DNA from: Phyllobacterium chamaecytisi
Lineage (GTDB): Bacteria; Pseudomonadota; Alphaproteobacteria; Rhizobiales; Rhizobiaceae
Assembly: GCF_020164455.1 (NCBI RefSeq)
Contig: NZ_JAIQWW010000012.1
Span: forward strand, 1 to 64,000
Direction: 5' to 3'
Length of the DNA: 64,000 nt
Shown here piece by piece: positions 9,249 through 60,374 of this stretch. Made by a program: the position numbers and the translations under genes. Under the pieces are notes generated by a model that saw nothing but the letters and a program-made list of their open reading frames with translations, made no database searches and was not told the DNA's origin. Every line of letters starts with the position of its first letter. Positions within the stretch are counted from its first letter, which is position 1.

Positions 9249-9268
9249 ACTCAAGTTTCTTGTTGTCG

Positions 9269-9299
9269 TTAACCAGTCGTTAAGCATTACAATCTATAA
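9269..9299 (+). promoter_or_regulatory. CtrA-type box overlapping a promoter for the sRNA candidate
   Basis: TTAA-N7-TTAA (TTAACCAGTCGTTAA, 9269-9283) is an exact match to the alphaproteobacterial CtrA recognition core. Ten bases further on is CTATAA (9294-9299), which resembles the rhizobial -10 element CTATAT, with no good sigma-70 -35. This is the geometry of a CtrA-activated promoter, with the box replacing the -35. It would start RNA near 9306, just before three hairpins. The box upstream of the Omp25-like gene has nearly the same spacing to its -10. Confidence 0.55.
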
Positions 9300-9305
9300 A
9301 TTGAT

Positions 9306-9405
9306 CATCCAGTTTTCTGGATTCTTACCAAGTGGTTTGGCCACTTTGTTTGACGCCTCCCTGTTAGACTCCTGAGAGCCGCCTCGTTTTTGCGGCTCTT
9401 TTTTT
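9306..9405 (+). ncRNA. Candidate trans-acting sRNA with three hairpins
   Basis: Three consecutive stem-loops occupy about 100 bases. The first is ATCCAG-TTTT-CTGGAT (9307-9322). The second is AAGTGG-TTTGG-CCACTT (9330-9346). After a linker of about 28 bases comes a terminator, AGAGCCGC/GCGGCTCT (9375-9399) plus a T-run. The linker contains GCCTCCCTG and ACTCCTG, unpaired pyrimidine motifs complementary to Shine-Dalgarno sequences. This resembles the AbcR and other alpha-r sRNA families of Rhizobiales, but I cannot assign a family by eye. No open reading frame of note lies here. The promoter is described at 9269-9299. Confidence 0.6.
9375..9405 (+). terminator. Rho-independent terminator
   Basis: An 8-bp perfect stem (AGAGCCGC / GCGGCTCT) with a 9-base loop is followed by seven T residues. 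It serves the sRNA candidate and would also stop read-through from opgC. Confidence 0.85.
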
Positions 9406-59052: not shown

Positions 59053-59088
59053 AAAAAACAACACCCACCGCGGGAGGAGCGGTGGGTG
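59053..59088 (-). terminator. Terminator of the DUF1127/RNA transcript
   Basis: A 10-bp perfect stem (CACCCACCGC / GCGGTGGGTG) with loop TCCTCCC is followed on the minus strand by TTG and six T residues. Confidence 0.85.
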
Positions 59089-59176
59089 CTATTTGTAAAG
59101 ATCAGCTGGGAGGAGACTGATCTCTAGACCATCCGTGACTTGGGAGGAGAACGCCCCGGAGGTTAATCGAATTTGC
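59053..59176 (-). ncRNA. Cuckoo/CcsR-like RNA with three CUCCUCCC motifs, downstream of DUF1127
   Basis: Read leftward from the DUF1127 stop, CTCCTCCC (anti-Shine-Dalgarno) occurs three times: at 59142-59149, 59108-59115 and 59072-59079. The second lies in the loop of a 7-bp hairpin (AGATCAG/CTGATCT, 59099-59123), and the third in the loop of the 10-bp terminator hairpin. The first lies in a weaker pairing. In Rhodobacter, CcsR RNAs with CCUCCUCCC loops are co-transcribed with a DUF1127 gene. The order here is the same: coding micro-gene, then loops, then terminator. Confidence 0.7.
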
Positions 59177-59326
59177 TTACTGAGCCGAAGCGGCCTTCTT
59201 GGCGACGAAAGAAATGTCGCCGCGGGAAATGCCGAGGTCATTCAGTTCACGTGCGGACAGGCGGTTCAGTTCCGTGACAGTGTCACGATAGCGGCGCCAA
59301 TTATTGTAAGAGCGGATCAGGTTCAT
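59177..59326 (-). CDS. DUF1127 (YjiS-like) small basic protein
   Basis: This 49-residue protein begins MNLIRSYNNWRRYRDTVTEL and has the diagnostic DUF1127 core LNRLSARELNDLGISRGDI. The basic, aromatic-rich single helix followed by a DIG-type turn suggests nucleic-acid or membrane contact; in Rhodobacter a family member (CcaF1) binds RNA. An AAGGTGAG site precedes the ATG. A longer in-frame region of 42 residues was rejected. It heads the transcript that continues into the CUCCUCCC-loop RNA. Confidence 0.85.
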   Translation of the reverse strand: MNLIRSYNNWRRYRDTVTELNRLSARELNDLGISRGDISFVAKKAASAQ

Positions 59327-59380
59327 TTCACTCACCTTGTAAGTTCTTGTTTGTTTGATCATTTTTCGATCATGCTGCTC

Positions 59381-59420
59381 ATATAGTAGACAGCCTGCCA
59401 AACTTGCAGTGACAAGTTTG
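59381..59420 (-). promoter_or_regulatory. DUF1127 promoter with overlapping dyad operator
   Basis: On the minus strand CTATAT, a perfect rhizobial -10, lies at 59386-59381. Its expected -35 position is covered by CAAACTTG-CAGTGA-CAAGTTTG (59399-59420), an 8-bp inverted repeat. This suggests that an activator or repressor dimer controls the DUF1127/RNA transcript. An obvious RpoH-type -35 was not found. Confidence 0.5.
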
Positions 59421-59505
59421 CATAGCTGCTTTGCAACGAAATGATGGATCACCTCCGTGCGAAACGCCAGGCGCTGAAGGTCGATTTGACATTCTTGCTT
59501 ACTGA

Positions 59506-59946
59506 TCAGGCTCGGACTCTTGCCTTGGACGTTCTCGCAGGCGAGCGACGGTTAGTTGACTGGTTTGCAGCTTCTTCCGCCAACACCTTGTCAGCCTTTT
59601 TGGCAGCGGCTTCGCATTGCTTGCGGAATTTCTCGACCTCTTCTTCGGTCAGATGCTCGATGCCTATAAAGGCGTTCTTGGCCTCGCTCACGCGCACCAA
59701 TTCGTCGAGTTTTGCCTGAATCGCAACGCCATCGCGGTTTTGCGTATTCTGGATAAGGAAGACCATAAGAAATGTAATGATGGTCGTGCCGGTATTGATG
59801 ATCAATTGCCAGGTGTCGGAAAAGCCAAAAATTGGGCCGGTCACGCCCCAAACGACAACGACCAAGCAACAGAGTATGAAGGTAAGCGGCTTGCCGGCAG
59901 CCAGTGCAACGTCGTTGGCGATCCGCGTAAACAATTTGCCAAACAT
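59506..59946 (-). CDS. Low-affinity iron permease family small membrane protein
   Basis: The 146-residue protein matches the bacterial low-affinity iron permease (PF04120-type) family. It has two membrane spans (about 20-40 and 50-68) and the TGPIFGFSDTWQLIINTGTT and FLIQNTQNRDGVAIQAKLDEL segments. A charged C-terminal helix follows. Transport of iron by bacterial members is not well shown, so the role is uncertain. It is monocistronic, with its start in the 428-base gap before the sugar transporter. Confidence 0.75.
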   Translation of the reverse strand: MFGKLFTRIANDVALAAGKPLTFILCCLVVVVWGVTGPIFGFSDTWQLIINTGTTIITFLMVFLIQNTQNRDGVAIQAKLDELVRVSEAKNAFIGIEHLTEEEVEKFRKQCEAAAKKADKVLAEEAANQSTNRRSPARTSKARVRA

Positions 59947-60374
59947 GGTGTCGTCCTCCCGACAAGCAGCGAGGAGATAACTTGGTGCGGCGCGAAATGT
60001 TCCACGAGGCGCTGCAAGCTACCCAGGGCTGTTGGATCGTGAGACTGTGGGGAAATGGCGCGCCCGAGGATGCGAACCTCTGGCGATTCGTAGTCTGGCT
60101 ATCGTGCAGCAGTGCGCGCCACCATGCGAAGCAGCCATCGTTTGTTTGGCTCCCTTCGACCATGGATTGTAGACGACTAAGCTCCAATCGAAACCCGGAG
60201 GGCATAGTGCGTGAATTATAATTCATGTACTGAATTATATTGACAAAGATTTTCTTTTAGGCTTGATTGCTCCGACAGCATTTCGAGGAGGATTGCTGGA
60301 CTTCACAACGAATAGTGGCGGCTTGCGAGGCACCACGAAACCAATGGGAGGGGCTTCGGCCTCGAGGAGGACAC
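59947..60374. other. Intergenic region before the sugar ABC operon
   Basis: This 428-base stretch holds no gene I can support. A 79-codon frame at 59982-60221 has no ribosome site and no recognisable protein. The right part contains the palindrome and promoter listed at 60212-60268, then a leader of about 105 bases to the TTG start. The left part must hold the promoter of the iron-permease-like gene. Confidence 0.6.
60212..60268 (+). promoter_or_regulatory. Sugar ABC operon promoter with palindromic operator
   Basis: TGAATTATAATTCA (60212-60225) is a perfect 14-bp palindrome. Its left half TGAATTATA is repeated directly at 60231-60239, 19 bases on. TTGACA, a perfect -35, follows immediately (60240-60245), with a weak -10 TTGATT at 60263-60268 (17-base spacer). 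The layout suggests a sugar-responsive repressor or activator bound just upstream of the polymerase. Confidence 0.5.

What the first reader, a model, noticed from the sequence alone, without database searches (positions are those of the whole stretch)
59053..59326. DUF1127 gene followed by a cuckoo/CcsR-type RNA with three CUCCUCCC motifs
Seen: a 49-codon DUF1127 gene, then on the same strand three copies of CTCCTCCC (59142-59149, 59108-59115, 59072-59079). Two sit in hairpin loops and the last is inside the terminator hairpin. Known: in Rhodobacter, CcsR RNAs with CCUCCUCCC loops follow and share transcripts with a DUF1127 gene, and such cuckoo RNAs have been proposed across Alphaproteobacteria. 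Inference: the mRNA 3' part is processed into a sponge or anti-Shine-Dalgarno RNA, and the protein may affect its processing.
Basis: partly seen in the sequence, partly recalled or inferred. Interest (0 to 1): 0.75.

Follow-up and report, generated by a model that had tools for sequence, protein, structure and literature searches.

The report
DUF1127 mRNA carrying an ar14 sRNA
A tiny-protein gene in a plant-associated soil bacterium is followed, apparently in the same transcript, by a known type of small regulatory RNA whose three loops can block ribosome-binding sites, and the promoter in front carries a conserved site resembling that of a regulator already known to switch such RNAs on.

Summary
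On the minus strand a 49-codon DUF1127 gene (59177-59326) is followed after 8 nt by an ar14 RNA (Rfam RF02344, 59056-59168, 65.1 bits, cut-off 58.8), of the αr14/NfeR1 "cuckoo" family. Its three hairpins each expose CUCCUCCC; the last is the terminator. The source is a Phyllobacterium or close relative.

The arrangement is conserved: CTCCTCCC lies within 260 nt after the stop in 79 of 80 related DUF1127 loci (controls 0 of 79, 0 of 80). Stems covary, loops are kept.

What I add: the conserved promoter lies upstream of the gene and carries the published LsrB/VtlR box (GCAT-N3-TG-N3-T), exact in 66 of 80 loci (controls 3 and 1 of 80), at a fixed distance from a CTATAT-like -10. VtlR is known to activate such a gene (atu1667) in Agrobacterium, where the authors left open whether it encodes a protein or acts as an sRNA; LsrB binds the promoter of the stand-alone ar14 RNA NfeR1. 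Here both seem to be one transcript, and the protein is under purifying selection. A new member of a known kind with a testable regulatory link; no expression data.

The parts
59419..59435 (-). LsrB/VtlR-type box TGCAAAGCAGCTATGCA; contains A-N3-CA-N3-ATGC, the reverse complement of the published GCAT-N3-TG-N3-T
   Evidence: 0.96 majority identity in 18 orthologues against 0.44 in the flank; consensus quoted in PMC7486931 and PMC8844928; exact within 150 nt upstream in 66 of 80 loci
59381..59386 (-). -10 element CTATAT
   Evidence: identical in all 18 orthologues; box to first -10-like hexamer 33 or 35 nt in the 66 loci with an exact box. Not listed by the E. coli-type promoter scan
59327..59380 (-). 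5' leader with AAGGTGAG before the start codon
   Evidence: 0.87 majority identity in 18 orthologues; function inferred
59177..59326 (-). DUF1127 gene, 49 aa, arginine-rich
   Evidence: PF06568 59.1 bits; 1684 synonymous against 387 nonsynonymous codon differences over all pairs of 18 orthologues
59056..59168 (-). ar14 (NfeR1/cuckoo) RNA, the apparent 3' part of the same transcript
   Evidence: RF02344 65.1 bits, gathering 58.8
59128..59163 (-). hairpin 1, loop with CUCCUCCC at 59142-59149
   Evidence: fold; 6 of 9 pairs with changes on both sides
59096..59126 (-). hairpin 2, loop with CUCCUCCC at 59108-59115
   Evidence: fold; 4 of 9 pairs with changes on both sides
59053..59094 (-). hairpin 3: intrinsic terminator, loop UCCUCCC (motif 59072-59079), followed by a T run
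   Evidence: fold; terminator scan

Best explanation
One promoter (-10 at 55-60 nt, box at 93-109 nt upstream of the start codon), probably activated by LsrB/VtlR, makes a transcript of roughly 320 nt. It encodes a 49-aa DUF1127 protein and ends in an ar14 RNA. The 3' part is probably cut off (RNase E is the known nuclease in the Rhodobacter counterpart) and kept as a ~110-120-nt sRNA. Each of its three loops can pair with a GGGAGGA-type Shine-Dalgarno sequence, lowering translation of uptake and catabolic mRNAs as NfeR1 does in Sinorhizobium. Shown here: family membership by Rfam score, paired stems with conserved exposed loops, conserved linkage, selection on the protein, conserved box and -10. 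Inferred: co-transcription, cleavage, LsrB binding, target repression, any cooperation between protein and RNA.
For: ar14 hit. CTCCTCCC within 260 nt after the stop in 79 of 80 loci chosen only by DUF1127 similarity; controls 0 of 79 and 0 of 80. ar14 above cut-off behind DUF1127 in 46 of the 53 loci scanned, of 80. In 41 genomes of the family 34 of 114 ar14 lie within 150 nt after a DUF1127 domain, chance about 0.007. Compensatory changes in 10 of 30 pairs, reached by 1 of 500 shuffles. 237 motifs: mean unpaired probability 0.97 against 0.65 with the surroundings shuffled. Published box exact upstream in 66 of 80, controls 3 and 1 of 80, shuffles 66 of 1600. A LysR regulator in the genome matches 9HH1 (A. 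tumefaciens LsrB) with 482 bits and sits beside an AbcR gene with an exact box. Published: LsrB binds PnfeR1; VtlR directly activates atu1667; NfeR1's three motifs silence ABC-transporter mRNAs.
Against: No transcript data. The box alone is not specific: the 13-mer occurs 16 times in the window against 11.4 expected. 14 of 80 loci lack an exact box. Within the genome, two of six ar14 copies (L002, L006) have no exact box and L004's exact match is at another place. The window copy scores fifth of the genome's six and lacks the full nonamer. Target evidence is weak (6 of 20 transport proteins against 3 of 40, p 0.03, small convenience samples). In the five plasmid-collection records read (Sinorhizobium, Rhizobium, Ensifer) none has an ar14 directly behind DUF1127, so the fusion is not universal. 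13 of 40 ar14-bearing genomes have no unit by the strict rule.
Confidence: 0.7

Rival explanations
1. The hairpins are only a stable 3' UTR and terminator protecting the DUF1127 mRNA; nothing acts in trans.
For: It lies directly behind the stop and ends in a terminator; the terminator stem is the best conserved stem.
Against: Loops are kept while stems drift with compensation; the same RNA apparently stands alone in three of six copies of this genome (L002, L003, L004); the founding member NfeR1 silences targets through these loops.
Confidence: 0.12
2. The ar14 RNA is made from its own promoter inside the DUF1127 gene, not from the shared transcript.
For: Stand-alone ar14 copies have promoter-like sequence of their own (published for NfeR1). 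The ORF itself is conserved (0.93), so a promoter inside it could not be told apart by conservation.
Against: Only 8 nt separate stop and RNA; the stop-to-hairpin stretch is poorly conserved (0.63) while the upstream box and -10 are at 0.96-1.00; the promoter scan found one weak site only, across the start codon of the gene, but it also missed the CTATAT site.
Confidence: 0.12
3. The box is bound by another LysR-type regulator and LsrB is not involved.
For: The box is short and of the generic T-N11-A type; it is not specific by itself.
Against: It matches the LsrB/VtlR consensus exactly, VtlR is known to bind the promoter of a DUF1127-type gene and LsrB an ar14 promoter, and the genome has an LsrB-like regulator next to an AbcR gene with an exact box.
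Confidence: 0.2
4. The DUF1127 protein works elsewhere (for example on a sensor kinase) and only shares regulation with the RNA.
For: Agrobacterium DUF1127 proteins act on PhoR and no RNA binding was found for Salmonella YjiS (PMC12501420, passages); DUF1127 genes without ar14 exist.
Against: CcaF1 of Rhodobacter binds RNA and aids maturation of its downstream CcsR RNAs; the linkage is retained in many genera.
Confidence: 0.45

Closest known systems
αr14 / NfeR1 (RF02344, Smr14C2) of Sinorhizobium meliloti
   Same: Rfam score above cut-off, three hairpins with exposed anti-Shine-Dalgarno loops, terminator as last hairpin here, LsrB-type box upstream
   Different: NfeR1 is described with its own σ70 promoter; here the RNA is the apparent 3' part of a DUF1127 mRNA, and the loops lack the first C of the nonamer
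ccaF1-CcsR1-4 of Rhodobacter sphaeroides (CIN1 locus)
   Same: DUF1127 gene followed in one operon by CcsR RNAs, which belong to the cuckoo type
   Different: 71-aa protein, four RNAs, RpoHI/RpoHII promoter there; here 49 aa, one three-hairpin RNA, LsrB-like box and CTATAT -10
VtlR-activated small genes atu1667 (Agrobacterium) and BAB1_0914/BAB2_0512 (Brucella; named DUF1127 in PMC12595884)
   Same: short gene of this kind with a VtlR consensus upstream
   Different: the authors leave open whether atu1667 is a protein gene or an sRNA and list it as a putative sRNA in their model; whether an ar14 RNA follows those exact genes was not checked here
AbcR (ar15)
   Same: LsrB/VtlR-controlled, anti-SD loops, shares the target SMc03121 with NfeR1
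   Different: another RNA family, Hfq-bound; it is described as a stand-alone sRNA gene
6C RNA (RF01066)
   Same: C-rich loops; weak hit 34.2 bits
   Different: below its cut-off of 47

Membership tests
ar14 (RF02344) | covariance-model score at or above 58.8 bits | tested here: met
   65.1 bits, full length 1-123
ar14 (RF02344) | three hairpins, anti-SD core CUCCUCCC unpaired in each (7 of 8 nt in the third) | tested here: met
ar14 (RF02344) | full nonamer CCUCCUCCC in every loop (how the literature describes the family; not Rfam's criterion) | tested here: not met
   UCUCCUCCC, UCUCCUCCC, GCUCCUCCC in the window; nonamer in 209 of 237 motifs of the related loci and in loops of many orthologues, so it reads as a diverged orthologue of full members
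ar14 (RF02344) | acts in trans at ribosome-binding sites | not testable with these tools
   165 GGGAGGA-N4-10-ATG sites in the genome against 19 for the reversed pattern show possible targets only
CIN1 / CcaF1-CcsR type locus | DUF1127 gene directly followed by cuckoo-type RNA on the same strand | tested here: met
CIN1 / CcaF1-CcsR type locus | RNase E- and DUF1127-dependent maturation of the RNA | not testable with these tools
   published for Rhodobacter only, as far as seen
LsrB/VtlR regulon | GCAT-N3-TG-N3-T box in the promoter | tested here: met
   59419-59435; exact in 66 of 80 loci
LsrB/VtlR regulon | direct binding and activation | not testable with these tools
   none for this locus
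6C RNA (RF01066) | score at or above 47 bits | tested here: not met
   34.2 bits

The most novel reading that the evidence does not exclude
The short DUF1127 genes that LsrB/VtlR switches on are dual transcripts in many Rhizobiales: a small protein plus a cuckoo sRNA in the 3' UTR. The RNA, not only the protein, would then carry part of the regulator's effect, which would help explain why the known direct targets do not account for the size of the LsrB/VtlR regulon. It would answer the open question whether the atu1667 type of transcript is an mRNA or an sRNA with 'both'.
Probability: 0.5. Interest if true: 0.7.

Novelty: new member of a known kind. Interest (0 to 1): 0.5.

Why it matters
Two literatures describe halves of what looks like one unit: the LsrB/VtlR work sees a small gene of unclear function, and the sRNA work sees αr14/cuckoo RNAs. 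If they are one LsrB-controlled transcript, deletions of 'the small protein gene' may or may not have removed the sRNA, and the gap between VtlR's three directly bound promoters and its more than 250 affected genes (PMC7486931) becomes testable. I found no paper joining the two among the listings and passages seen in searches of the held library; Reinkensmeier and Giegerich 2015 and Grützner 2021 are not held, and Kraus 2020 and Robledo 2017 were not looked up, so it may be in print there.

Tried and rejected
Sponge role: no evidence either way; the relatives act as antisense RNAs. 6C membership: below cut-off. The published 15-mer VtlR box with 2 mismatches as a genome-wide predictor: 44 sites (reversed-pattern control 6), too many to predict targets. 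The pattern TGCA-N9,10-TGCA-N28-34-CTAWMT gave exactly 3 genome sites, all at ar14 units (reversed control 1), but it was written after seeing those promoters, so it shows specificity only. Target enrichment: weak. Only 20 of 165 sites were scanned, from the first contigs; 10 of 30 fetched sites had ORFs under 60 aa and were dropped; the transport counts were read off the Pfam tables by eye, of which only the first 25 families are printed (of 38 for the targets, 66 for the background). LysR gene beside the ar15-DUF1127-ar14 cluster of L136: none recognised by eye in the ORF list. In one search I used 114 ar14 rows at or above cut-off and 130 DUF1127 rows (123 listed down to 32.3 bits, plus 7); weaker and unlisted DUF1127 rows were dropped, so the association is a lower bound. 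One search's tandem joining missed one chain interrupted by a below-cut-off ar14. The structure counted was derived from the same alignment, which favours it over its slid versions. My note 4 says 10 of 15; the right count is 9 of 15.

Full report
What is there. On the minus strand, in order: a TGCA-N9-TGCA box (59435-59419), a CTATAT -10 (59386-59381), a leader, a 49-codon DUF1127 gene (59326-59177; PF06568 59.1 bits), 8 nt, and an Rfam ar14 RNA (RF02344, 59168-59056, 65.1 bits against a gathering score of 58.8). The RNA folds into three hairpins (59163-59128, 59126-59096, 59094-59056), each with CUCCUCCC in the loop (7 of 8 nt in the third), at -50.2 kcal/mol, z -7.0, 0 of 200 shuffles as stable. 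The last hairpin is the intrinsic terminator.

More than chance. CTCCTCCC occurs five times in the window (mean 1.67 in shuffles), three of them in 78 nt here. A search with DUF1127 proteins alone (window and L001), blind to RNA and promoter, gave 80 loci (the best 80 of 237). CTCCTCCC lies within 260 nt after the stop in 79 of 80 (miss: L095), and in 0 of 79 and 0 of 80 control stretches. Rfam, run on 53 of the 80, finds ar14 behind the gene in 46 (misses L063, L070, L094, L095, L111, L116, L118). Most of the 80 loci come from Phyllobacterium and the Brucella/Ochrobactrum/Pseudochrobactrum group, so they are not independent. In a separate draw of 41 genomes of the family, ar14 is over the cut-off in 40 of 41 and DUF1127 in 39 of the 40 others. 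34 of 114 ar14 copies lie within 150 nt after a DUF1127 domain on the same strand (48 with tandem copies), against about 0.007 expected, taking 4.5 Mb per genome; 27 of the 40 ar14-bearing genomes have such a unit by this strict rule, 13 do not. All 20 genomes of the genus searched have ar14.

Structure and loops. In 18 Phyllobacterium-type orthologues 10 of 30 pairs have changes on both sides, 31 cells against 8.2 in shuffles, and sliding the partners destroys the pairing (95.7% of cells against 35-51%; the structure was derived from the same alignment, which favours it in the sliding test). Loops have 0.99, 0.95 and 0.92 majority identity; arms of hairpins 1 and 2 have 0.69-0.88; the terminator arms 0.94-0.98. 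Over the related loci all 237 motifs within 280 nt after the stop have an unpaired probability above 0.6, mean 0.97, against 0.65 for the same motifs with the surroundings shuffled and 0.65 for other pyrimidine-rich 8-mers. The window copy itself is somewhat worn: none of its loops has the full nonamer (209 of 237 motifs in relatives do), and its third loop is 3 nt shorter than in several other Phyllobacterium species.

The gene is a real protein gene: among 18 orthologues codon differences are 1684 synonymous and 387 nonsynonymous over all pairs, while random single changes would be 110 synonymous to 331 nonsynonymous. So the transcript appears to carry both a protein and an RNA.

The promoter. 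Upstream of the gene the alignment is diverged (0.44) except for the box (0.96), the stretch to the -10 (0.81) and the -10 (1.00); between stop and hairpin 1 it is 0.63. That favours one shared promoter, though a promoter inside the conserved ORF could not be seen this way. The box is an exact match, read on the other strand, to the LsrB/VtlR consensus GCAT-N3-TG-N3-T quoted in PMC7486931 (passages; there called confirmed in B. abortus and hypothesised in A. tumefaciens) and PMC8844928 (passages). As a test fixed by the literature, an exact match lies within 150 nt upstream of the gene in 66 of 80 loci, against 3 and 1 of 80 in two control stretches and 66 of 1600 shuffles. Its distance to the first -10-like hexamer is 33 nt in 49 and 35 nt in 17. 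The Brucella box quoted in PMC12595884 is found with at most 3 mismatches in 54 of 80, controls 4 and 1 of 80. The 13-mer is not specific on its own (16 in the window, 11.4 expected). The genome has a LysR regulator (L204 406-1302) that matches PDB 9HH1 with 482 bits; PMC11975290 (passages) names 9HH1 as its LsrB structure. It lies about 200 nt upstream of an AbcR/ar15 gene that has an exact box; the other four of five ar15 copies have none within 150 nt.

Paralogues. The genome has six ar14 above cut-off: two behind DUF1127 (window and L001), one behind a phasin gene (L006; PF09361), three apparently standing alone (L002-L004), one of these 0.9 kb from a chaperonin gene (L004). TGCA-N9,10-TGCA boxes lie upstream of five of the six, not of the phasin copy; exact LsrB consensus at the expected place in three (L001, L003, window), at another place in L004, none in L002 and L006. 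So a similar box serves fused and stand-alone copies.

Fused versus split. In a Sinorhizobium meliloti record (L167) two ar14, two DUF1127 genes and trmFO are neighbours but apparently separate units. In Rhizobium sp. SU303 (L169) the DUF1127 gene has its own terminator-like hairpin with TTCCTCCC in the loop, followed about 200 nt on by a separate four-motif ar14 with its own exact box. L168, L170 and L171 have DUF1127 and no ar14 in the 3.1 kb read. Four of these five have an exact box within 300 nt upstream of DUF1127. I infer that fusion and splitting of two members of one regulon have both happened; the direction is not determined.

Function. Published: NfeR1's three loops are redundant and silence ABC-transporter mRNAs (PMC7143759, PMC8844928, passages); LsrB binds its promoter (PMC10746234 section 5); VtlR directly activates atu1667, an orthologue of BAB1_0914 and BAB2_0512 (DUF1127 genes, PMC12595884 passages), and the authors write that it is unknown whether it encodes a protein or acts as an sRNA (PMC7486931); CcaF1 binds RNA and helps CcsR maturation (PMC10253847 passages), while other DUF1127 proteins act on sensor kinases (PMC12501420 passages). 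In this genome GGGAGGA lies 4-10 nt before an ATG 165 times, the reversed pattern 19 times; one such site is the neighbouring iron-permease gene. Of 20 such genes scanned about 6 are transport proteins against 3 of 40 others, p 0.03: suggestive only.

Verdict. The finding is real and its family is known: a diverged ar14/cuckoo RNA in a CIN1-like DUF1127 unit. The added point, a conserved LsrB/VtlR-type box on what looks like a shared promoter, joins two published lines of work and makes an open question testable. I had no expression, binding or target experiment for this locus.

Noticed in passing
window 9260-9405 (+): A second Rfam sRNA in the window, BjrC1505 (RF02356, 76.6 bits, cut-off 50); its consensus structure puts CCUCCC in a hairpin loop, another CU-rich anti-SD-like stretch.
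   Followed up: partly
L006 (own genome C8:151814-151930, -): An ar14 copy lies directly behind a phasin gene instead of DUF1127; its third loop motif is degenerate and no LsrB-type box was found upstream.
   Followed up: partly
G027:C45:28034-28528; also G036, G037, G040, and G020 (one of its four below cut-off): Tandem runs of three or four ar14 RNAs behind one DUF1127 gene, i.e. by inference arrays of about nine to twelve anti-SD hairpins.
   Followed up: no
L136 2131-2243 and L137 2144-2256: An AbcR-type RNA (ar15) sits about 250 nt upstream of the DUF1127-ar14 unit in Paramesorhizobium deserti and Mesorhizobium sp. RMAD-H1, putting two sRNA types tied to LsrB elsewhere side by side.
   Followed up: partly
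L104, L115 (titled Bacillus subtilis SK6B4), L092 (titled Xylophilus MAG): These records carry Pseudochrobactrum- or Brucella-like DUF1127-ar14 loci; the labels look wrong or the assemblies contaminated.
   Followed up: no
window 59944-59960 (-): The low-affinity iron permease gene just upstream of the unit starts with GGGAGGACGACACCATG, a 7-nt complement of the sRNA loop core and so a candidate target.
   Followed up: no
L094, L111, L114-L118: A second Pseudochrobactrum-type DUF1127 locus keeps a box-like sequence (CAGAGGAGCTATGCA) and hairpin-like repeats but has only one or two intact motifs; decaying or differently tuned arrays.
   Followed up: no
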